Source of the DNA: Linnemannia elongata
Lineage: Eukaryota; Mortierellomycota; Mortierellomycetes; Mortierellales; Mortierellaceae
Assembly (NCBI GenBank): GCA_036320915.1
Contig: JAXBDG010000017.1
Location: 1,392,620-1,456,619, forward strand
Length of the DNA stretch: 64,000 nucleotides
Reading direction: 5' to 3'
Part shown: piece after piece, positions 52,226 to 64,000 of the stretch
Layout of the letters: each line of letters begins with the position of its first letter
Position numbering within the stretch: position 1 is the stretch's first letter
The notes under the pieces: model-generated
The model's database searches: none
Told to the model about the DNA's origin: nothing
What the model saw: the letters and a program-made list of their open reading frames with translations, nothing else
Position numbers and translations under genes: made by a program

Positions 52226-53503
52226 CTAGTACTTGATGGGGGCGATGCCGACACTGGGGGATGAGGTCTGGGAAAAAACACAGTAGTTGTTCTTGATGAA
52301 CACGTCTCCGAGGATCCAGAGATCCTCTTGACCGCCTTGGATACCCGAGTAGCACAAACCATCACCAACATCCTGGTAAGCAAGATCAGCCAGCGCGACA
52401 TGGAAATCAGATCCCCCCATGTTGAACGAGACTCGTTGGGTAGTGTCGTCGCGAATCGAACAAGGGACGAGCCATCCGTTGCCAGACTCGAAGACAGCAT
52501 TGGGGATGTTATCGTGAACAGCCGCAGCAGCGGCATTGCTGATGATGATGAGGGTGGTGCCCGTGTCGATGATACCCTCGGAGGCTTGGTTGAGTGAATG
52601 CCCATTGAAGAGCGCGTCACGGATGGCAACTTGCCAGTATCCCTTTCGGGTAACAGGGACATATTTCAATGAACCAGTGAACTTGCTAGTATCGATACCC
52701 CCAAAGAGATACTCGCCACCGTCGCCGTTGAAGAGCCGCTGTGACGGGAGAAAGACCGAGACGACAGGCTGGACAAGGAGACCGGCAGCAATAACGTTAT
52801 CCATGAAAGTCTTGACGCCTCTGACAGACTCGATGCTGTTGAAACCAAGGCCAAAAAGTCCGTCTTCAGGAGATTTTCCAAACTGAGACGACTCCTCAGT
52901 AGCCAGGCCGATCGTTTGCCGGACTTGCAGTCCTCCAACATTCATCATGTCCGATCCGAGGTATCCAGAGGAAGATGAGCCATCGCCATAGCCCATGCTC
53001 CATCCTCGACCGTCCTTTTGGAAAGTTGACGACTGAGCCGAGTTGAAGCGAGTGTGCTTTTTGCAAGCCGGGGTATTGCAGGTGCTCGACGGGAACCACG
53101 TATCCGACGATCCCTATCGGTTGAAAGTAAAGGATAATTCGGTCGGTGAGTGACCATTCTTCACTGTTCATTCGAATAATACGAGAGAGAATTAAAGTTT
53201 TCTTACTGTGTCAAAGTTCAGCTTGAGGGCTTGAGCAGGAGTGCCGACAGAGACAGTGCCATAATACTCCAGGTCGGGGTAGACGTCAGTCAAAGGAACA
53301 CTCCCGATGGATCCAACAAGAACCTTGAGGTCAGGGTAACGCCTGTTCAATTTTGCAACTTGGGCTTGAGCATTGGGCTTGAAGTAAGGGTTGCGGGTGA
53401 GGGGGACGGCATAGGTCGTAGTTCGGTTGTTGATATTGATGGGCGAAGCACTAGCCACTGACGCGGTTGCAACTGTCAGAGAGATGAGGGGAATGAGTTT
53501 CAT
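52226..53503 (-). CDS. Secreted pepsin-like aspartic protease
   Basis: Exons 53503-53207 and 53113-52226 join in phase to 394 aa. A signal peptide (LIPLISLTVATASVASA) is followed by a propeptide with basic residues (YAVPLTRNPYFK) and the mature N-terminal strand EYYGTVSVGTPAQALKLNF. The first catalytic motif FDT-GSSDTWFPSSTC is split by the intron directly after FDT. The flap is SMGYGDGSSSSGYLG. The second catalytic motif is EGIIDTGTTLIIIS. The C-terminal WILGDVFIKNNYCVFSQ and GIAPIKY are standard for rhizopuspepsin-like enzymes. Length is typical. It is likely secreted for protein digestion at acidic pH. Two 12-bp direct repeats lie upstream. Confidence 0.96.
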
Positions 53504-54627
53504 TTTGTATATCTTGAGAGACTAGGAGAAGGTAAGAGGTAGAAAGAAGCAGAGAAGGCGGTGGTGATCGAGGTAGCTGTAGAATAATAAACGAGACGAA
53601 GGTGGAGTATTTGTATTGTTTTTCTAGGGAGTTGAGGATGAGCATGCAGCCGTGCATAGAAGTAGCCATGATCTACTCTCTGTTCCTGAAAATAACAGCC
53701 AGGGGACCAAGGGGTTGTTGCCCCTGAGTAACCGCTATTGGCCCTGAGTAACCATTGTGCCTTGGTAAATACTATGAACACCCTTTTTTTACTGCTCATT
53801 AGGGTTGGCTATTTTCGGTCCCATGGGTTTTTGTTACTGTCAGCTTCGAGGCACATAGAATGGGTGACCTTGCATGGTGGCGTGTAGGGTGATCATGAGT
53901 TGGATTTATTGTTACTGCCTAGCTGGTTCCTGTGCCATGTTTTTTTGTTGGCTGGATCATGCGTGCTTTTGGACGCTTCGACTCCTCTGGATCATGAACA
54001 AGAAAAAGGAGGTCAAGAGAGAATGATGGCCATCGGTACATTCAGTGCAAGAAAAGGGAGACTGAGAAGGGGACAGACAGGGATAGAATGACTACACATA
54101 TTAGCCCGTCGGTCACCAGTATGTGCTTATGAGGCTTACGAATAGGGTAGGCAAGAACTCATCTCGGGGTTGGGGGGTCATAAGCATAAGTCCTCGTTAT
54201 ATGATTGATGCCAAAGTGGTGCTTAGAAAGGAGAGCAAAAAGGAGATGAGCATAAGGCATTGTCTGCTGTTTTATCCTTTTGCCCTTTTTTATTTTCGTA
54301 TGCAAAGTCGTATTGCTCTTTTGTCTTTATTTCACTCCCCTACCTACAGCTTCCCCCCACCCATGTAACTCCCTCCCAGGACATCCCTTACCTAACCCTC
54401 AAACATCAGACCTGACCAAGCGTCATTCGCCACATCCATCAGTCTGCCCCCCTGGGGCGCTCCCTCTCAACTCATCCCCAATTCAGACCCGGGAAAGAAG
54501 GGGGGACAACAAACCGCAGTGGGAAAATGAAACGTAATTGAACATCTAATATCAACAATGAGCAGCCCCATCAAGAGGCGCCTGATGCGTAGCGTAATAG
54601 TTAATGCTGTGGAGGTGGTGTGGGGCG
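53504..54627. other. Intergenic region between protease gene and Fanzor remnant
   Basis: No supported gene. It contains the 12-bp repeats near 53,722-53,753 and a C-rich stretch around 54,340-54,490. The last 200 nt would be the 3' flank of the Fanzor-like remnant, where a guide RNA would be encoded if the element had been complete. I could not identify terminal inverted repeats. Confidence 0.45.
53722..53753. repeat. Paired 12-bp direct repeat upstream of the protease gene
   Basis: CCCTGAGTAACC occurs at 53722-53733 and 53742-53753, 20 bp start to start. It lies about 220 bp upstream of the protease ATG. The first copy overlaps a small GGGG/CCCC inverted repeat. The spacing of two helical turns suggests a paired protein-binding site, but this rests on position alone. 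Confidence 0.35.
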
Positions 54628-55232
54628 TCAGAGCTCTTGTGGCCAAGAGAAATCTGTCATCCATTGTAATGCTGCATGAGCCATATTGTGCGCCCCGTTA
54701 TGGTCACGGTCCCTGGCTCGGTTGCATTGTGTGCATTGGATGGAGCGACGGTCCATGGTGACATGGTCCTCACTCTTGGTGTGGCATTGACAGCACGATT
54801 TAGACGTGAAGTACTCGTCTGCCGACACGATCACAAACCCCAAGGCCTCCAACTAAAGTTATGCAAGGCAAGAGAAGAACAGCAAAGGTAAGCATTGGGT
54901 TTGATACGTCATTTTTGCTAGACAATAAAACAACAGGGGGAAAAGTGAATATCATTATGCTCACCTTGATCTTCAGCTTCTTGAAGAACTGCAAATGTCG
55001 AATAGGCCGACCGGGCCTGAATGTGAAGTTGCCATCGCCAGCAACAAACAAGGGGCGCACCCCTTCGTCTTCCTCTCTCCATTTGCCCTTGATTCCACAT
55101 GAGCGGATGACGGCACCGACAACCTTGTTTAGTGTAGCGTTCTGAGCCTACCTCAGATTCCTTTTCTTGACTTTAGATATAATGGAATTGTAGAAGGCTC
55201 GAAGCCGCTTGACACCGGAAGTTTTACATTTA
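54628..55232 (-). pseudogene. 3' remnant of a Fanzor/TnpB-like RNA-guided nuclease gene
   Basis: Two exons, 55147-54965 and 54852-54628, join in phase across a 112-nt GT-AG intron (136 codons including the stop). Exon 1 carries GDGNFTFRPGRPIRHLQFF, like the GDGSF block of Fanzor and TnpB proteins. Exon 2 carries VIVSADEYFTSKSCCQCHT, then IQCTQCNRARDRDHNGAHNM. This is the OrfB-type zinc ribbon with two CxxC pairs, followed by the RuvC-III Asp in DHNGAHN. The same frame extends 5' of exon 1 with similar-looking sequence (RLRAFYNSIISKVKKRNLR) but is broken by TAG at 55148-55150. It meets the F-box/LRR stop near 55,232. RuvC-I and the RNA-binding N-terminal part are missing, so independent nuclease activity is not expected. 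The spliceosomal intron argues for eukaryotic Fanzor rather than bacterial contamination. Confidence 0.82.
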
Positions 55233-56846
55233 TTCAGAGGATGAAGAAAGGACTCTTACATAGCTAATAATGCCAAACCGAACGTACTTCAAAGAAGACA
55301 AAGAGCCAATCGCATCACCTACAATTCTCTTGAAATGAGCGCTGCACCAGCCTGCACAATCGTCAGAACCGAAGGCCAGATGCACCTCACGCCAACCGGG
55401 CCTAAAAATGTAGGCCTGAGGGTCGTTGTAATCTTCAAACTCTGGGTCCCATTCAATACTGGCCCTCGATGTCCTCTCATTGCTTTCATAGTCTTCATCA
55501 CCCTCGTGCAAGTGATTATTCTCTCCCGCGAGTGTGAATCCATTGAACGTCACACTCTCCAGGCCCGGACATGTCACCAGTTTGTTCAGAAATAGCAATG
55601 GTTGTCGACGGTCACACGGTTCTCGTCTAAAGTGCACCGCCACCGCCAGATGTTTGAGTTGACTGCACTGCTCCAGGATTGTGCCCAAGTTGCTGAAGGA
55701 ATCCCGATAGTTATCGTCACGAATATTCAGCTCCAGGGTCTCGAGACAGTCCCAGTGCACTGACAAAGCCTCCATGAAAGTGTTGTCCAGCCTCAATCCA
55801 CGCAGCGAGGCATGGACCAAGTGTCCTGGAGCGCAAGCGTTGAGGAGGTGAAGAGCAGTAACACCCCATTGATGAAGCCGCCAAGTTTTCTCTTCCCAGT
55901 CGTTGCCATGCTTAATCGTTTGCAGGCGTGGGCAGGACTTACGCAAAGTCAGACCCAGTGCCTTGCCCGTACTCCCCAAAAGGTCTCCAAACACAGCCGT
56001 CTCCAGAGCAGGAGCAATGTCAATTAACCAATAGAGCGTCAGCGGGCAACGGTTATGCTCAACATCCAGATGGAGCGTCTTGAGCTTGGTAAGCCTAATA
56101 CGCCTACACATCTGCTCCATCGTCTTAAACTCCTCGACTCCTGTTTCCATCGACGTTATAACCGTATATCGCGACTTGCCCGTGTCATCCCGTTTTGAGC
56201 GTTTGAGTAGAATGGAGTCACAGCGGGTCAGGCGGAGCTCCTCGAGGTGTTCTGCATTCTTGGCCAAGGCGCGGTAGAGATACTTGGTAAGAAAGGTCCA
56301 GTCATCGAGACCCAGGTATCGCAGTCGCTGGAGAGATAAAATACTCGCAAAGTCCTTCAACTCCCCTCGCGATAAATTCTTGCGGTCTCGCGCCCAATGA
56401 AGCACACGCAGTCCGGGGTGGGCGAGGATCAGGCGTTTAGCCCAAGTACTGTCAACGTCGGCAGACAGACGGAGCTCTTGGAGGCGAGAGCAATTGAGCT
56501 TAGGTGGATCGTCTATTCGACTAAATCGCGTATAATAGCTTGAGAGGTCGAGGAAGCGAATGTAAAAACTGTTTTTCTGGACAATATCGACAGGAATTTC
56601 GTACTCTTCATTGTCAATACATTCGTAGGCGTTGCCGAGAGACTTGACGGCAGATTCGACATAGACGGACCATAGGAGCGGTGTAAGGGTTGTGCGGAAG
56701 AGACGGTTGACGGATATGGCTGCGAGGAGATCTTTTGGTTTTAAGAGCCAGACGTCCTCGTAGGCTAAATGTACAGATTCCCAGAGTGGGATAAACTGAC
56801 CGATGGCGAGAACGATTTCGTAGAGGGAAAGTGGATGCGTGTTCAT
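55230..56846 (-). CDS. F-box/LRR-type protein, Mortierella-style
   Basis: Single exon of 538 aa as an unspliced model. The N-terminus (HPLSLYEIVLAIGQFIPLWE, then LLAAISVNRLFRTTLTPLLW) is a divergent F-box. The remainder is Leu-rich repeat-like, with recurring LxxLxLxxC/N strands such as LQELRLSADVD, LRVLHWARD, LRYLGLDDWTF, LKTLHLDVEHN and LETLELNIRDD. Such proteins form large families in Mortierellaceae and are presumed SCF substrate receptors; no substrate is known. The C-terminal codons overlap a possible splice donor (AGCTAT|GTAAGA, exon end 55260). That donor would replace the last ten residues with the Fanzor-like exons downstream, in phase. The ATG at 56846 is chosen because the F-box-like block starts directly after it. 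Confidence 0.85.
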   Translation of the reverse strand: MNTHPLSLYEIVLAIGQFIPLWESVHLAYEDVWLLKPKDLLAAISVNRLFRTTLTPLLWSVYVESAVKSLGNAYECIDNEEYEIPVDIVQKNSFYIRFLDLSSYYTRFSRIDDPPKLNCSRLQELRLSADVDSTWAKRLILAHPGLRVLHWARDRKNLSRGELKDFASILSLQRLRYLGLDDWTFLTKYLYRALAKNAEHLEELRLTRCDSILLKRSKRDDTGKSRYTVITSMETGVEEFKTMEQMCRRIRLTKLKTLHLDVEHNRCPLTLYWLIDIAPALETAVFGDLLGSTGKALGLTLRKSCPRLQTIKHGNDWEEKTWRLHQWGVTALHLLNACAPGHLVHASLRGLRLDNTFMEALSVHWDCLETLELNIRDDNYRDSFSNLGTILEQCSQLKHLAVAVHFRREPCDRRQPLLFLNKLVTCPGLESVTFNGFTLAGENNHLHEGDEDYESNERTSRASIEWDPEFEDYNDPQAYIFRPGWREVHLAFGSDDCAGWCSAHFKRIVGDAIGSLSSLKYVRFGIISYVRVLSSSSE

Positions 56847-58560
56847 CGTGGGCGGCAAAGAAGGAGCGAGGCAGGTTATTTTTCTTGTGCCTGGGACAAA
56901 CACCTTCCTTTTATTCAATTATCAATGAAAACTCGCATAATGCCACTAATCAAGGCGAGAGATGAAAAGGATGTGGTAGCGGTGGCAAGGGGATAAAGGT
57001 GTGGGAATGGTGGCAAAGAAAAAGTGGAAAAAGAGCAAGATAGGACCTGGGAGCGGTGGCAAAGACGAGGGCGAGAAAGAAAGGAGTGCGGTGGCAAAGG
57101 TGGAGAAATTCCGAGATTGTTGACCATTTGCACAAAAAGGATAATTTAGCACCGAATTGCAAAAGGCAACAAATAGAAAGATAGAACAAGCAGACAGCGA
57201 ATGCTAACAAACAAAGAAAACAATACAAATATTTTATCAGACCTGTTGCCATTCAGCAGTGTACTTCTTTCGCATTGCGCTAGTGAGTGAAGAAAATGAT
57301 GTTATCACTTATCAATCGAACATCGACCACTTGTAGATAACCACACCTACGACAACCCGACCTCGGAACGTCCACTGTGAACATCTCCTATGCTCCTTTG
57401 GAAAGTAGCACCCACGCATTCTTAAAAAAGTGAATTTACGTGTTTAGACCTCCTCATGTTGGCTGTTGAGAGGTGAAGATACTTGGTACCTCTTCTCTCC
57501 CTCTCCATATCACCTTCCACATATTGCTGTCATATAGAAAAATAGAGTGACCAAAGGGGCGGGGGCATGGTGCAACTTTATAAAGAGTGGAAGGAAGGGA
57601 CAGAGATATATTTTTTGGTATTGATTGACTAATGAAAAGAAAACCATACTGGTCAGGGCGCAAAATGTTCATTACTCTTCCATCCTCATTTGATACTCGA
57701 TCGGACGCACCCTCCGTCCTCCGCAAAGACACACGCACGAGAGGGCGAGTAAATGATGATATGAAGGAAAAGGAAGAAGAAGCAAAAGAAGATGAAGCGA
57801 GAACCAGACAAGCTGTTGATCAGTCATTCGACTTTGAGTAAAAGCAAAGAGGATGTTTTTTTATTGTTTGTATAAAAGAGAGTGGATCTGTCTGTGATTC
57901 TAAACGATAAGCTGATTACATGGCAAGATGAATGCTAGGAGTGTGAGTGTTGATCGGAAATGAAAAGGTAGGGACAGTATGGGAGAGAGTGGATTTTAGC
58001 CCCCCCTTTTTCTCAACTTTTTTTCTTTGTTTTGTTTCCCACGCAGATCATGGATAAAGAAAATAGTGTTGCTTGCTTGGACACCCTTTCACACAACTCG
58101 AAAGGCTAAGCAGGTAAGGAGACAAAACGGATCGATGTGGGAATGAAACGCTCACACTCTATCAGTCTCACTCGCTGATGAATAATGTTAATCACAATGG
58201 CAATCATGAAAGGACATAGACCATGGAAGTACTTAGTCCGTTCCCACGCAGAACACTGTCGTGCTCTGCTACCCTTTCACTTCTCTCTTCCACTGGTGTG
58301 CTCTGATTCCCTTTCACTCCTCTCTTTCTCTGTCACGCTCTGCTTCTCTTTCAATACTCTCTTTCTCTGTCGTATTCTGTTTTCCTTTCACTTCGCCCAA
58401 TTATCGTTCATCACTTTTTCTACTTTCTCACCCCATTTTTGAGAGTGCGAGTGCGCGTGTTTGTGCATGTGTGTTGCTTGATGCGAGGCGGGTGAAGATG
58501 ACGAGGGTGTGCGTGCGTGTGTTTATATGTGTTGATTCGAAGGCAGGGTGGATGTGTTGA
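56847..58560. other. Subtelomeric gene-free region with degenerate short repeats
   Basis: No credible gene. Near 56,981-57,099 the motif GGTGGCAAAG recurs four times (56981, 57009, 57055, 57090). At 58,261-58,400 a C/T-rich unit of 35-38 bp beginning GTGCTCTG repeats about four times. Between 58,440 and 58,560 the sequence is GT/GC-rich and then switches to the long purine tract. Confidence 0.55.
58261..58405. repeat. Degenerate C/T-rich minisatellite, 35-38 bp unit
   Basis: Unit starts lie at about 58261, 58298, 58336 and 58371. Each has a CTCTG-like start followed by C/T-rich sequence with TTTCA and CTCTCTTTCTC elements. Copies differ at many sites. The pyrimidines lie on the + strand, opposite to the following 4.6 kb. 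Confidence 0.5.
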
Positions 58561-60700
58561 GTGTGGAATGAAACGAGAGTGGGAGACAGATGAGAGAGAG
58601 AGGAAGTGTGGACGGGAACAAAAGTGATGTGAAGGGAAGAGGGGAGGGAAAAGGGGGAGAGGATAAGTGAGAGACGGGAACGGGAAAAGAGAGACAAAGC
58701 ATGGTTATTCTGTGAGAGGCAAGAGAAACGAAGCAAAAAAGACCCCACTCCTCCCAACGCGAAAGAAAAGGAGCACAAAAGAGATTGAGTGGCAAGACGT
58801 CTAAGCGCACGATTATGATCAAGGGAGTCAACAAAAGATGAACGGAAAAAAAAGAATTCAAGGAGGTAAAAGCCAGGTGGAGAATGAGGTCGCGAAAAGA
58901 GAACAGATGACGTTCTGAATGATTGTTAAAAGTTGAGGGAAAGAAGGAACATTGATTCCCTTGAAAAAAAAGGTGTTGGTGATGAGTAAATAGACAGGAA
59001 ATACAAACAAAGAACGGGAGAGAGAGAGAGGAATAGGACAGAGAAAAGAAATAGCGAGAAGGAGAGGAGAAGAAGGAAGAGGGAGAGGTAGTGACGTGAG
59101 TGAGAAAAGGCAAATTACGTGGAGGAAAATCTCTTGCAAAAGTAGGAATGGGAAAGAAACGGGAAGATGGTAACGAGAAGGAGGACAATGGAGAGAGAGA
59201 GTGAGGGAGAGGAAAGAAGAAGGGAGAACAAAAAAGAGGTACAGAACGGGGGGGATTCATGAGGGAGGATGGAGGCAAAAGAACAATGGGTTGCTGCAGA
59301 CAGTGACATAAAAAAGAAAGTAGACAGCAGAAAAACAAAAAAAAAGAAAAAAGAAGGAAGAGGAAGACAGAATAGAAAAAGAAGACAAAAGAAGAAGACA
59401 GAAGGGAAAGAAATAAAGAGAAAGAAAAGAGAGAGACAGAAAAGGGAGAAATTGAGACGACACTTTTGATGAAAAAAAGTGGAGAACGAGAGAGTCTTGT
59501 GTGTGAACCGATAGAATGAGATTGCAAGAGTAAAAGGATGAGGTTGTGGATGATTGTGAGGATTGAGAAAAATGAATGTTGCTTAATCATGACCTTGCTG
59601 TTGATGATGAGGTGGAAATGGAGAGTGTTTCAGGAAAAAAGAAAGAGAAAGGAAGAGAGGGGAGGAGGGGTTGGAAGGAGGAGGGAAGAAAACGGAAGAA
59701 CAACAACAGAAGAAAAAAAGCAAAAAAAAAGAGCGAAGGAGAGAGGGGAAAAGAAGGGCATAAAGGGAGTTGGAAAAAAAAACGGGATAAGAAAGAGAAG
59801 AGAGCAAGAATGCGTGAAAGAGAGAGGGAGGGAGAAAGGTTCTTTGCAAGAAAGAATGAGGCAAGACAGAAGAAAAAAGTAACAAAGAGAATGAAAAAGA
59901 TTGCGTCGCAAGTTAACCCAGCTGATTGTTGATGATCAAAGGAATCGACACAATGATGAACAGAAAAGGGAATGAAGAAGTAAGAAAAAGAAGAGGACGC
60001 GTTTGCCTGAGAACAAAGGATGATGTTATGTCGTCTTGCGATTGGGGAGAAGAGAATGTTGATTCGTTAGCAGAAGGCCGTTGATGCAGTGCGTATGGAG
60101 GAAAAGTAACAGAGAAAAGAGAATGAGAAGGGAAAACGCGATTAAAGAGGCAGGAAGGAAAGAGAGAGTAAGTGGGAGCGTGAAAAAAGGTCGGTAGTTT
60201 GAGGACTTGTAACCAGGGAGGGAGTAAAAGAGAAAGAAAAAAAGTAGAACAAGCCAGAGTGTGAAATGATGCATGTGAGTATTGATGATCAAAGGAAGCA
60301 AAACACATGATTAGTGGTGGGAGGAAGCAAACAAGATGAAGAATGAGAGAGCAAGAGGAAAACGGATGAGGCAGTGAATAGTTGTGACGTTGGCGGTGAG
60401 GGAATGAGTATTAACTTGCAAACAGATGATGGTGGGTGAGCATTTAAAGAAAAGCGATGCATATAAAAAAGGATAGGTAGGAGAGAAAGTGTGGAAAAGT
60501 GATTGCCGTGTAGTCTTCTTGAATGGAGATTGGAAATACAAAATAGAAACAAACACAGCAAGAGAATACAAATGAAGGTAGAAAACGAGGGATGTCCGAT
60601 GAGTTCATTCAAGTTACAGAAGGAAGGCGAAAGAGAAGGACAAAGCAGATGAGTAAGAGGAATGAGTAATTGTTGTTAATGAGACGAGTAACAAAGAACA
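58560..60700. other. Polypurine-rich subtelomeric tract without regular units
   Basis: Over 2.1 kb the + strand is mainly A and G with few C/T interruptions. I see no regular unit here. Long open frames on the minus strand (for example 59590-58523) consist of Ser/Leu/Phe/Pro runs and follow from composition, because stop codons need purines on that strand. Confidence 0.65.
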
Positions 60701-60808
60701 GTGTTAGATGCAAAAAAGAATGAAGAGAGAAAAGTGAAGAAAAATGGACAGGAGAGAGAGTCAAAAAAATATGGGTAGAGAGTAAAGAGAAAGAAAAGGG
60801 GAAAAAAA

Positions 60809-60810
<2 letters not shown>

Positions 60811-60847
<37 letters not shown>
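60811..60847. repeat. GA dinucleotide microsatellite
   Basis: A near-perfect AG array of about 37 nt sits at the start of the regular purine repeats. Confidence 0.85.
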
Positions 60848-60848
<1 letters not shown>

Positions 60849-61039
60849 CAGAGATAAAAAAGAAACAAAGATAGAAAAACAACAAAAAAAGAAAGGGAAA
60901 GGAAAGAGAAGGTTAGAGAGGCAGATAGGAAGAAAAAGCAAACAGAAAAAGCAAAAGAAAAAAAAGAGTGGAAAAAGAAAACCGAGTGTAAAGAATGAAA
61001 AAAAAGGTCTAGAAGGAAAAAAAATGAAAATAAAGAAAA

Positions 61040-63050
61040 AAAAAAGATTGTAGAGAAAGACAAAGGAGCGTAGAGAAGGAAAAAAGAGTGTAGAGAGAGA
61101 CAAAAGAGCGTAGAGAAGGAGAAAAAAAGTGTTGAGAGTGAAAAAAAGTGTAGAGTAAGAAAAAAAAGTGTGGAGGGAGAAAAAAAAGTGTAGAGGAAGA
61201 AAAAAATGAAGAGAGAAAAAAAAAGTGCAGAGAGAGAAAAAAGTGTAGAGAGATAAAAAAAATATTGAGGGAGAAAAAGAAGTGTCGAGGGAGAAAAAAA
61301 GAGTGGAGAGAGAAAAACAGTGTAGAGGGAGAAAAAAAAGTGTAGAGGGAGAAAAAAAGCGCCAGAGAGAATAAAGAGTGTAGAGAGAGAAAAAAAAGTG
61401 CAGAGAGAGAAAAATAGTACAGAGAGAGAAAAAAAGTGTAGAGAGAGAAAAAAAAGTGCAGAGAGCGGAACAAAAAAGTACAGAGAGAGAAGAAAAAGTG
61501 TAGAAGAAAAAAAGTGCAGAGAGTGAAAAAAAAGTGTAGAGAGAGGAAAAAAGTGAAGGAGAAAAAAAGTGCAGAGAAAAAAAAAAGTGCAGAGAGAGAA
61601 AAAAAGTGTGGGGGGAGAAAAAAAAGAGCAGACAGAGAAAAAAAGATGCAGACAGAAAAAAAAAGTATAGAGAGAGAAAAAAACGTGTAGAGAGAGAAAA
61701 AAAGTGTAGAGAGAAAAAAAATAGAGCAGAGAGTAAAAAAAGAGCAGAGAGGGAAAAAAAAGTGTAAAGAGAGAAAAAAAACTGCAGCGAGAGGAGAAAA
61801 AGTGTAAAGAGAGAAAGAAAAGTATTGAGAGATAAAAAAAAGTGTGAAGGGAGAAAAAAAAGTACAGACAGAGAAAAAAAGTGCAGAGAGTGAAAAAAAA
61901 GTGTAGAGAGAGAAAAAAAGTATAGGGGGAGAGAAAAAAGAATAGAGAGAGAAAAAAGATGCAGAGAGAGAAAAAAAAATGTAGAGAGAGAAAAAAAAGT
62001 GTAGAGAGAGAAAAAAAAGTGTAGAGAGAGAAAAGTGTAGGGGGAGAAAAAAAAGAGCAGCGAGGGAAAAAAAGGTGCAGAAAGAGAAGAAAAGTGTAGA
62101 GAGAGAAAAAAAAAGTATAGAGAGAGAAAATAAGTGCAGAGAGAGAAAAAAAAGTATAGAAAGAGAAAAAAAGTGTAGGGGGAGAAAAAAAGGAGCAAAG
62201 AGAGAGAAAATGATGCAGAGAGAGAAAAAAACTGTAAAGAGAGAAAAAACGTGTAGAGAGAGAAAAAAAGTGTAGAGGGAGAAAAAAAGTGCAGAGATAG
62301 AAAAAAAAAGTATAGAGAGAGAAAAAAAAGTGTAGAAACGAAAAAAATTGCAGAGGGAGTAAAAAAAGTGTAATGAGAGAGAAAAAGTGCAGAGAGAGAA
62401 AAAAAAGTGTAGAGAGAGAAAAAAAGTGTAGAGGGAGAAAAAAAGTTTAGGGGGAGAAAAAAAAGTATAGAGAGAGAAAAAAAGATGCTGAGAGAGAAAA
62501 AAAGATGCTGAGAGAGAAAAAAAGTGTATTGAGAGAAAAAAAGTGTAGAGGGAGAAAAAAAGTTTAGGGGGAGAAAAAAAAGTATAGAGAGAGAAAAAAA
62601 GATGCTGAGAGAGAAAAAAAGATGCTGAGAGAGAAAAAAAGTGTATTGAGAGAAAAAAAGTGTAGAGGGAGAAAAAAAAGTGCAGGGAGAGAAAAAAAAA
62701 TACAGAGAGAGAAAAAAAAGTGTGGAAACGAAAAAAATTGCAGAGGGAGGAAAAAAAGTGTAGAGAGGGAAAGAAATGTGTTGAGAAAGAAAAAAAGTGT
62801 ACAGGGGGAAAAAAAAGTGCAGAGAGAGAAAAAAAGTGTACACAGAGAAAAAAAAGTGTAGTGTAAGAAAAAAAAATTCAGAGAGCAGAAAGAACAAGTG
62901 TAAAAAGGTGTAGGGAGAAAAAAAAAGACGTAGAGAGATAAAAAAAAGTATACAAAGAGAAAAAAGACTTTGTAGAGAAAAAAAAGGAGTAAAGAGAAAA
63001 AAAAGGTGCTGGGGGAGAAAAAAAGCTTAGGAGAGAAAAAAAGCATACAC
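61040..63050. repeat. Purine-rich subtelomeric minisatellite, unit about 19-21 bp
   Basis: About 100 degenerate copies of a unit close to GTGTAGAGAGAGAAAAAAA run over 2 kb. Variation is in the GTGTAG half (GTGCAG, GTATAG, GATGCAG, GAGCAG) and in the length of the A run. Unit length varies between 18 and 22 bp. A larger internal duplication is visible near 62,463-62,690. The minus strand stays open for 762 codons, translating as Phe/Ser/Leu/Tyr/Thr heptads. Confidence 0.85.
62463..62690. repeat. 118-bp higher-order duplication inside the purine minisatellite
   Basis: The block starting AGTATAGAGAGAG at 62463 and containing two GATGCTG units and one GTGTATTG unit recurs almost exactly at 62581. 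Another pair of related segments (GAAACGAAAAAAATTGCAGA) lies near 62,335 and 62,723. Confidence 0.7.
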
Positions 63051-63800
63051 GGAACAATAACAACACTAGCAAGCATATACAATGATAAAACATGAAACGC
63101 TTTCATAAACAGGGGCTGTATGTTTGTAAAGGGAGCCAATGAAAAGAAAAAAAAGAAGTGAAAAAAATTAAAAACAGTTGAAAAAAAAAATTAAAAAAAA
63201 TCGTTACACCATCGTTACCCTCATATTACAACTTTATCATTGCCAGTAACATAGAAAGGGATGAAACCTTTAGAATATGTACAATTGAGCACACGTTGTT
63301 TAAAAAGAAAGCAAAAGAAAAAAAAATTGAAAAAAAATTCCAATACGTTAACTATCTTGGTTTCAACCAAGCCATCAGCAGTAAGCATTGACTCAGATAT
63401 AACTTATAAACCTTAACAACGTGCATGGCATATGCAAAGAGAAATAAGAAAGAAAAGAATAAAAACAGAAAAGAAGAAGAATAAAATTCGAGACAGTTCT
63501 TAGATCTTTTCATTTCAACCATTCAATTACCGGTAAGCATATACGGATATGATAAAATGCAAACTGAAACAAGAACGTGTGCAATATATGATCAGAGATT
63601 ATAATAAGAAACCAAAAACATGAAAAATAGAGGAATAAATAAATTTCAGAATAAAGATATTCTTGCTTTAACAATGCCATCACCATTGTTCATAGACTGA
63701 GATGCAAGCTTAAAGATTTGCATATGCAGGTATAATGTTAATAAGACATCAAAATAAATAATCAGAAAAAATAGTTAAATGAATAAAAAATTAAGAATAG
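63050..63800. repeat. Degenerate ~150-bp AT-rich subtelomeric tandem repeat, about five copies
   Basis: A motif like CAACC(A)...CAGTAAGCATA...GATAT recurs with anchors near 63069, 63245, 63381, 63533 and 63688. Spacings are about 176, 136, 152 and 155 bp. Copies three and four also share a downstream ACGTGCATGG/ACGTGTGCAA-like element. A-rich spacers separate the copies. Confidence 0.6.
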
Positions 63801-63838
63801 TCCATATAAAAATTCGCAGACTCTTTTTTACCACGTTG

Positions 63839-64000
63839 TGGGTTTTTTAGGGTTTTTTAGGGTTTTTTAGGGTTTTTTAGGGTTTTTTAGGGTTTTTTAG
63901 GGTTTTTTAGGGTTTTTTAGGGTTTTTTAGGGTTTTTTAGGGTTTTTTAGGGTTTTTTAGGGTTTTTTAGGGTTTTTTAGGGTTTTTTAGGGTTTTTTAG
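63839..64000 (+). repeat. Telomere: 16 perfect copies of the decamer TTTTTTAGGG
   Basis: Sixteen 10-bp units without a single variant run to the last base of the window. The G-rich strand reads 5' to 3' toward the right end, as expected at a right chromosome end. The unit equals the common fungal TTAGGG with four extra T. No canonical TTAGGG arrays occur next to it. The junction sequence ACCACGTTGTGGG is unique. Confidence 0.95.

What the first reader, a model, noticed from the sequence alone, without database searches (positions are those of the whole stretch)
54628..55232. Remnant of a Fanzor (eukaryotic TnpB-like, RNA-guided nuclease) gene
The fragment has the OrfB zinc ribbon (CCQCH...CTQC), a RuvC-III-like DHNGAHN and a GDGNF block, split by a proper spliceosomal intron. 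Fanzors are programmable eukaryotic nucleases carried by transposons. Only the C-terminal part is left, next to an F-box gene about 9 kb from a telomere. Intact relatives may exist elsewhere in this genome.
Basis: partly seen in the sequence, partly recalled or inferred. Interest (0 to 1): 0.85.

Follow-up and report, generated by a model that had tools for sequence, protein, structure and literature searches.

The report
Dead Fanzor tail at chromosome ends
A decayed back end of a Fanzor, the RNA-guided DNA cutter of eukaryotic jumping genes, sits in a stretch of DNA copied onto several chromosome ends of a soil fungus, and many related genes elsewhere in that genome appear to carry an unusual second DNA-cutting domain.

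Summary
Confirmed: window 54628-55147 (-) encodes a spliced 135-residue Fanzor C-terminus (PF07282 E 2.4e-13) with the Fanzor-type glutamate before the zinc ribbon. The host is Linnemannia elongata. The tail sits at the inner edge of a block shared by eight contig ends, three with telomere arrays, downstream of one F-box-like gene. All eight copies lack the Fanzor N-terminus including RuvC-I, and each has at least one stop, indel or deletion; six of eight have lesions beyond the shared upstream TAG. So it is a relic. The block's inner border lies near the Fanzor element's own right end. Two facts resist 'inert': excess synonymous change in the zinc-ribbon exon (P 0.005), and six public gene models that run from the F-box gene into the tail, only one with the whole ribbon. 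Relatives: 30 of 45 interior Fanzor-type matches have a FEN1/XPG-like match 2.9-3.4 kb upstream. One 4.7-kb TIR transposon encodes both in one predicted 1322-residue protein. Three paper searches showed no report of such a fusion.

The parts
54965..55147 (-). Fanzor relic exon 1 (AQNATLNK...KKLKIK), with the GDGNF block
   Evidence: homologous to P0001/P0002
54853..54964 (-). spliceosomal intron GTGAGC...TTTAG, 112 bp, phase 0; same position and phase as intron 4 of the XPG-Fanzor transposon L047
   Evidence: junction used in public models P0002, P0048, P0050, P0063
54631..54852 (-). Fanzor relic exon 2: alternative catalytic Glu (DEYFTSKS), zinc ribbon CCQC...CTQC, RuvC-III RDRDHNGAHN
   Evidence: PF07282 E 1.2e-10 for exon 2 alone; signature regex met
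54628..54630 (-). stop codon of the relic frame (TGA)
54525..54627 (-). 3' flank of the relic up to the inferred right end of the element, also the centromere-proximal border of the shared subtelomeric block
   Evidence: interior relics C5 and C8 (C8:750891-750936) stop within a few bases of where subtelomeric copies stop
55148..55150 (-). in-frame TAG just upstream of exon 1, shared by 5 of 8 aligned copies
55151..55216 (-). further Fanzor sequence upstream of the TAG (VKRLRAFYNS...), start of Fanzor homology; truncation junction about 55216-55226
   Evidence: P0002 matches from residue 94; F-box paralogue L051 is similar up to about AATAAATTGTAA
55230..56846 (-). F-box/LRR-like ORF of 538 aa (stop included), open in 6 of 8 aligned copies; neighbour in all eight
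54525..64000 (.). shared subtelomeric block (Fanzor tail, F-box-like gene, AG-rich satellite, telomere)
   Evidence: all-against-all BLAST of 8 contig ends
63840..64000 (.). telomere array (TTTTTTAGGG)n, 16 copies

Best explanation
This is the non-functional C-terminal remnant of a Fanzor gene. A Fanzor element once lay beside an F-box-like gene near a chromosome end and lost its N-terminal part, including RuvC-I and whatever preceded it, before the block multiplied (inferred from the junction found at nine contig ends). The region from telomere to Fanzor right end was then copied onto other chromosome ends, probably by ectopic recombination or break-induced replication, and the Fanzor piece decayed there. 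The inner border lies at the element's right end, perhaps because other Fanzor copies served as the homology at which ends were exchanged (inferred). It makes no nuclease today: the RuvC triad cannot be completed. Shown: family, intron, truncation, block, border, lesions. Inferred: order of events and exchange mechanism.
For: PF07282 and Fanzor signature. The best genome matches come from eight places, all 6-15 kb from contig ends and reading away from them. The eight ends share the block, mostly at 80-97% identity with some pieces at 72-79%; three of the eight show the telomere array, the other five contigs stop inside the block. The F-box gene/Fanzor junction is at the same place in the eight aligned copies and at a ninth end, C12 start. 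Lesions: shared TAG in 5 of 8; further stops, indels or deletions in six (C6, C27, C3, C32, C31, C12); C2 and the window copy have only the shared TAG, the window copy also ending nine residues earlier than C6 and C2. One interior F-box paralogue ends at its own stop with no Fanzor in the 256 bases fetched behind it. Two interior relics stop at the same 3' point as the block, a third roughly so.
Against: Exon 2 has 17 synonymous, 16 missense and 3 stop events in 7 copies where 26% synonymous is expected (P 0.005), pairwise dN/dS 0.15 (95% 0.07-0.30): some constraint on the zinc ribbon after the copies diverged. Exon 1 shows none by event count (21:35:2 in 8 copies, P 0.15), though its pairwise dN/dS is 0.51 (0.31-0.85). 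Six of the 17 fetched public models of the F-box family run into the Fanzor tail. Caveats: events are few and not independent, and one search tested seven subsets without correction.
Confidence: 0.77

Rival explanations
1. The tail has been captured as 3' exons of the subtelomeric F-box-like gene, giving some F-box proteins a Fanzor zinc ribbon that binds nucleic acid but cannot cut.
For: A donor-like TATGTAAGAG near the end of the F-box ORF is kept in 7 of 8 copies and, by my reading of the window copy, joins in phase 0 to exon 1 or exon 2. Public gene models P0044, P0045, P0048, P0050, P0060 and P0063 run from F-box into tail. Excess synonymous change in exon 2.
Against: The six models use several different junctions, as expected of automatic predictors stitching neighbouring ORFs; only P0063 holds the whole zinc ribbon, and it holds just 24% of the F-box query and leaves the F-box frame before the tail; P0045 ends before exon 2 and P0050 skips the ribbon. 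The paralogue on C32 reads to its own stop at the same place. In four of eight copies exon 2 is broken within or before the ribbon (C3, C32, C31, C12). The other 11 of 17 fetched models do not show the tail (four of them interior-type paralogues, some partial).
Confidence: 0.18
2. The tail is an independent small gene or an omega-RNA source that still helps other Fanzors in trans.
For: The 3' flank to the element end is similar between interior and subtelomeric copies.
Against: Exon 1 has no start codon in frame. Of four 3' stretches of 112-119 nt folded, three are no better than shuffles (z -0.08, -0.05, +1.44) and one slightly better (z -1.17, 28 of 200 shuffles as good). A small hairpin pairs in 93% of cells but its covariation score is reached by 103 of 500 shuffles.
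Confidence: 0.03
3. An unrelated zinc-ribbon protein that resembles TnpB by chance.
For: None beyond the short length; weaker sub-cut-off Pfam matches (FAM27, SLH) also appear.
Against: PF07282 at nearly twice its cut-off, Fanzor regex, intron shared with a Fanzor transposon, a homologue that extends upstream to a DPG motif.
Confidence: 0.01

Closest known systems
Fanzor1 proteins of fungi (SpuFz1 of Spizellomyces, PpFz of Parasitella)
   Same: TNB zinc ribbon, alternative catalytic Glu, RuvC-III Asp, eukaryotic gene. The Fanzor half of a related public protein, P0005, has SpuFz and PpFz chains as its top six structural matches (E 4e-7 to 1.6e-4).
   Different: The window copy lacks the N-terminal half and RuvC-I. 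The P0005 model is low confidence (pLDDT 60.9) and the TM-scores of those six are 0.25 or less, so that match is only supporting.
Bacterial TnpB (IS200/605, IS607) and Cas12f
   Same: Zinc ribbon; most PDB sequence hits are of this group.
   Different: Glu position is of Fanzor type, and the gene has a spliceosomal intron.
P0002 (K457DRAFT_1838031, L. elongata AG-77) and P0001 (Mortierella sp. GBA39), short public proteins
   Same: 64% and 76% identity to the relic; same splice junction in P0002.
   Different: P0002 begins at a RuvC-I DPG motif that the window copy has lost.
XPG-Fanzor transposon of the same genome (L047 family)
   Same: Homologous C-terminus, intron at the same place and phase.
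   Different: Only about 36% identical to the relic; RuvC-I reads TLDGGQ rather than DPG; carries an N-terminal FEN1/XPG-like domain.
Subtelomeric repeat blocks such as yeast Y' elements (recalled)
   Same: Long homologous block next to the telomere on several chromosome ends, holding a gene.
   Different: Inner border lies at a transposon end; content is an F-box-like gene and a Fanzor tail.

Membership tests
Fanzor | TNB / OrfB zinc ribbon (PF07282) | tested here: met
   E 2.4e-13, above the curated cut-off
Fanzor | Catalytic Glu six residues before the zinc ribbon (Ealt), then RuvC-III Asp | tested here: met
   Regex from PMC10711439 (passage) met in the window copy and 5 others, 6 of 8
Fanzor | RuvC-I DPG | tested here: not met
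   Region absent: Fanzor homology starts downstream of it; present in the AG-77 relative P0002. So: relic of a Fanzor, not a working Fanzor
Fanzor | REC/WED N-terminal half | tested here: not met
   The F-box-like ORF lies where it would be
Fanzor | Eukaryotic gene | tested here: met
   GT-AG intron, fungal genome
Fanzor | Lies in a transposon with defined ends | tested here: inconclusive
   Right end inferred from interior relics and subtelomeric copies; left end lost
Fanzor | omega-RNA at the 3' end | tested here: inconclusive
   No clear folding or covariation signal
Fanzor | RNA-guided DNA cutting | not testable with these tools
   Needs bench work
XPG-Fanzor fusion (relatives, not the window copy) | XPG/FEN1 domain in the same gene as TNB | tested here: met
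   L047: four in-frame GT-AG introns give 1322 aa, XPG_I there below its cut-off (17.8 against 24.9 bits); of 7 public proteins scanned, PF07282 passes in 7 and an XPG model passes in 2, P0011 and P0024; FEN1 fold, best E 4.4e-9
XPG-Fanzor fusion | XPG domain upstream of the window relic | tested here: not met
   None of the matches lies within 6 kb upstream of any of the 8 subtelomeric copies; the N-terminus is lost, so ancestry is open

The most novel reading that the evidence does not exclude
Linnemannia's live Fanzors, kin of this tail, form a two-nuclease class not found in my paper searches, in which a FEN1/XPG-type 5' nuclease and an RNA-guided Fanzor are one protein on a TIR transposon; and the subtelomeric tail has been re-used as an exon that gives chromosome-end F-box proteins a Fanzor zinc ribbon. 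The probability given is for both together; for the XPG-Fanzor fusion alone I would say 0.9.
Probability: 0.17. Interest if true: 0.82.

Novelty: new member of a known kind. Interest (0 to 1): 0.5.

Why it matters
The fragment itself is a dead member of a known family. It matters as a marker: it suggests that Fanzor elements took part in the build-up of fungal subtelomeres, and it leads to 30 Fanzor-type loci in the same genome that have a flap-nuclease-like match a fixed distance upstream. If that two-nuclease protein is real and active, it offers a direct test of how a Fanzor helps its transposon: RNA-guided cutting and processing of a 5' flap by the same protein.

Tried and rejected
Rejected: unrelated zinc ribbon; F-box/Fanzor fusion as the leading reading, because an F-box paralogue ends at its own stop and the fused public models disagree on the junction; omega-RNA hairpin. 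A first 3'-end alignment used wrong coordinates for one copy and was redone. The model of the Fanzor half, P0005, has pLDDT 60.9 and pTM 0.46; its structural matches are used only as support. Asking whether further XPG_I matches lie near other Fanzor loci failed: the tool was busy five times, and a second query was not repeated.

Papers. Searches: Fanzor + Mortierella 0; Fanzor 82, 40 listed; Fanzor + XPG 0; TTTTTTAGGG + telomer 27, 20 listed; Fanzor + flap endonuclease 2, listing only, off the topic by title; Fanzor + Linnemannia 0; Mortierell + telomer + subtelomer 2, listing only; Fanzor + subtelomer 3, 2 listed, listing only; TnpB + XPG + transposon + fungal 1, listing only, on Cas12a. Passages only were seen of PMC10711439, PMC3627910, PMC10432273, PMC11423790, PMC10100673 and PMC10767889; the word XPG is in the main text of none of the first four. 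A 2023 Science Advances survey of eukaryotic RNA-guided nucleases (recalled) is not held, so the fusion could be described there or in other papers outside this library.

Full report
Where it is. The window is the last 64 kb of contig C9 of a 51.1-Mb, 32-contig genome. Public proteins named F5H01DRAFT of Linnemannia elongata lie on contigs of exactly the lengths of C32, C12, C2 and C31 (lengths), so the host is that fungus (Mortierellaceae). Contig C9 ends in 16 copies of TTTTTTAGGG.

The observation. The spliced 135 residues hit PF07282 at E 2.4e-13. Exon 2 carries E-x6-CxxC-x16-CxxC-x4-D, the signature of the rearranged Fanzor-type active site (passages of PMC10711439; tested). RuvC-I is absent from the window copy. 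The only two public proteins found with the relic are 172 and 221 residues long; the longer, from strain AG-77, starts at a DPG motif. The relic therefore most likely stems from a Fanzor with RuvC-I.

The setting. Of 64 match rows in the genome, the best come from the ends of C9, C6, C27, C2, C3, C32, C31 and C12, 6-15 kb from the contig end, all reading away from it. These eight ends share a block, mostly at 80-97% identity with some pieces at 72-79%. Telomere arrays are seen at three of the eight, C9, C3 and C31; the other five contigs stop inside the block, so that these are chromosome ends is inferred. Within the block an F-box-like ORF lies directly upstream of the Fanzor tail; it is open in six of eight copies and broken in C2 and C31. 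A ninth contig end, C12 start, has the F-box-like gene and the start of the Fanzor tail. The block's inner border is about 95-105 bp past the stop. With the window's tail as query, subtelomeric copies C6, C27, C3, C2 and C31 stop at query bases 705-716, and so do two interior relics, on C5 and C8, both at 712; neither has an F-box-like match nearby. A third interior relic on C8 is similar up to about there in the alignment but matched only to base 631 in the search. That point is therefore probably the right end of the Fanzor element. C32 stops earlier (655) and C12 end is deleted from 455.

Decay. Beyond the missing N-terminus: a TAG before exon 1 in 5 of 8 copies (C9, C6, C27, C2, C31); a TGA in exon 1 of C6; a TAG in exon 1 and loss of most of exon 2 in C12; stops near the C-terminus in C27 and C3, plus a 1-bp deletion at the start of exon 2 in C3; indels and a TGA in C32; a 1-bp insertion and a TAA in C31. 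Every copy thus has at least one lesion and six have more than, or other than, the shared TAG. The window copy has the shared TAG and a stop nine residues earlier than in C6 and C2.

Evidence that does not fit a plainly inert relic. Counting changes in exon 2 over 7 copies (C12 left out) gives 17 synonymous, 16 missense and 3 stops, where 26% synonymous is expected (P 0.005). In five copies (C32, C31 and C12 left out) it is 13:5:2 (P 0.0003). Exon 1 is 21:35:2 in 8 copies (P 0.15) and 6:13:1 in the five (P 0.55). The F-box-like ORF is 71:123:1 in its six open copies (P 0.014). In shifted frames exon 2 gives 6:25:3 and 7:23:4. Pairwise dN/dS is 0.15 in exon 2 (0.07-0.30), 0.51 in exon 1 (0.31-0.85) and 0.53-0.57 in the F-box-like ORF. 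The events are few, the copies related and seven subsets were tested, so I read this as a hint. Distances in the F-box part and in the Fanzor part are weakly to moderately correlated (r -0.00 to 0.62 over eight pairs of regions), and the two trees differ, so the block is mosaic. One reading is that the Fanzor part at some ends comes from elements that were once active, with ends exchanged inside Fanzor copies; this is inference.

Exon capture. Of 17 public proteins of the F-box family whose letters I printed, out of 28 found, six run into the Fanzor tail: P0044, P0045, P0048, P0050, P0060, P0063. P0050 uses the TATGTAAGAG donor but then skips the zinc ribbon, P0060 jumps straight to exon 2 and ends inside the ribbon, P0045 stops before exon 2, and only P0063 holds the whole ribbon. 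The other 11 do not show the tail. The interior paralogue on C32 ends with YVKVLSSSS and a stop, with no Fanzor in the 256 bases behind it. I therefore keep capture as a rival at 0.18.

Relatives with a second nuclease domain. Four copies of a 4.7-kb element were compared. L047, L048 and L050 are 99.0-99.96% identical over about 4.7 kb; L049 is 99.3-99.95% identical to them over 4.4 kb but has lost part of its 5' region. L047 and L048 have inverted repeats beginning GGCTGCAGGACAAT at both ends; L050 is altered by a few bases at one end and L049 keeps only GGCTGCAG at its 5' end. By my reading of the flanks all four have 8-bp duplications (8-9 in L049). On L047 and L048 four GT-AG introns join five exons in frame into 1322 residues, on L050 into 1328; L049 lacks the start. 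The last intron has the position and phase of the relic's intron. The C-terminus is a Fanzor TNB (E 1.1e-10); XPG_I scores 17.8 bits there, below its cut-off of 24.9. The N-terminal exon matches Rad2 (E 1.8e-5), and its model (pLDDT 78.9) matches FEN1, EXO1 and Rad2 structures, best E 4.4e-9. Acidic residues at positions that I recall as FEN1 catalytic ones are invariant or nearly so in an alignment of 15 proteins. Of seven public proteins scanned, an XPG model passes its cut-off in two, P0011 (Linnemannia gamsii) and P0024 (Benniella); P0007 (Podila verticillata) narrowly misses (23.5 against 24.9), P0013 and P0014 have weaker hits, P0042 and P0002 none. Genome-wide, 30 of 45 interior TNB loci have an XPG match 2.9-3.4 kb upstream on the same strand, and 30 of 37 XPG matches are so placed (from the 64 rows I set aside 17 subtelomeric rows and 2 extra pieces of the C5 locus, from the 38 rows one split piece; both searches score only the best candidates, so these are lower bounds). 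None of the 8 subtelomeric copies has one. In the 40 proteins the Fanzor glutamate regex is met by 16 and a RuvC-I of the form D[G/A]GQ, not DPG, is found in 23 (many of the 40 are partial). Among the relic's nearer kin, C11 (42% identical) has an XPG match upstream; for C12:1.11 Mb (41%) and C27:681 kb (45% over 53 residues) none was found. So an XPG-bearing ancestor for the relic is possible, not shown.

Verdict. The finding is right as far as it goes: a Fanzor remnant. It is a decayed part of a multiplied chromosome-end block. Its main value is as a pointer to a Fanzor class with a flap-nuclease-like domain that my paper searches did not turn up.

Noticed in passing
L047:4710-9394 (C1, about 2.469-2.474 Mb) and near-identical copies L048, L049, L050: Recently mobile 4.7-kb TIR transposon whose single predicted gene fuses an N-terminal FEN1/XPG-like nuclease domain to a Fanzor; related proteins with both domains in other Mortierellaceae.
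   Followed up: yes
window 63840-64000; also C3 start and C31 end: Telomere repeat is the 10-mer TTTTTTAGGG; two papers (passages seen) name this motif for the plant Cestrum elegans, and the word Mortierella is not in their main texts.
   Followed up: partly
window 60954-63042: About 2 kb of an AG-rich satellite with a period of about 20 bp, on the telomere side of the F-box-like gene.
   Followed up: no
C32:2.45-2.55 Mb and C1:2.7-2.9 Mb: Clusters of interior matches to the subtelomeric F-box-like gene.
   Followed up: partly
L024:194-1272 (within C12:1.110-1.114 Mb): ORFs that look like a Tc1/mariner transposase (recalled motif, not tested) lying between a Fanzor-like upstream piece and a TNB exon.
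   Followed up: no
L021 (C27:679884-683030): Divergent Fanzor relative with a RuvC-I DPG motif; its TNB match has stops inside.
   Followed up: partly
window 52226-53521 (-): ORFs that look like a pepsin-type aspartic protease (recalled motif, not tested).
   Followed up: no
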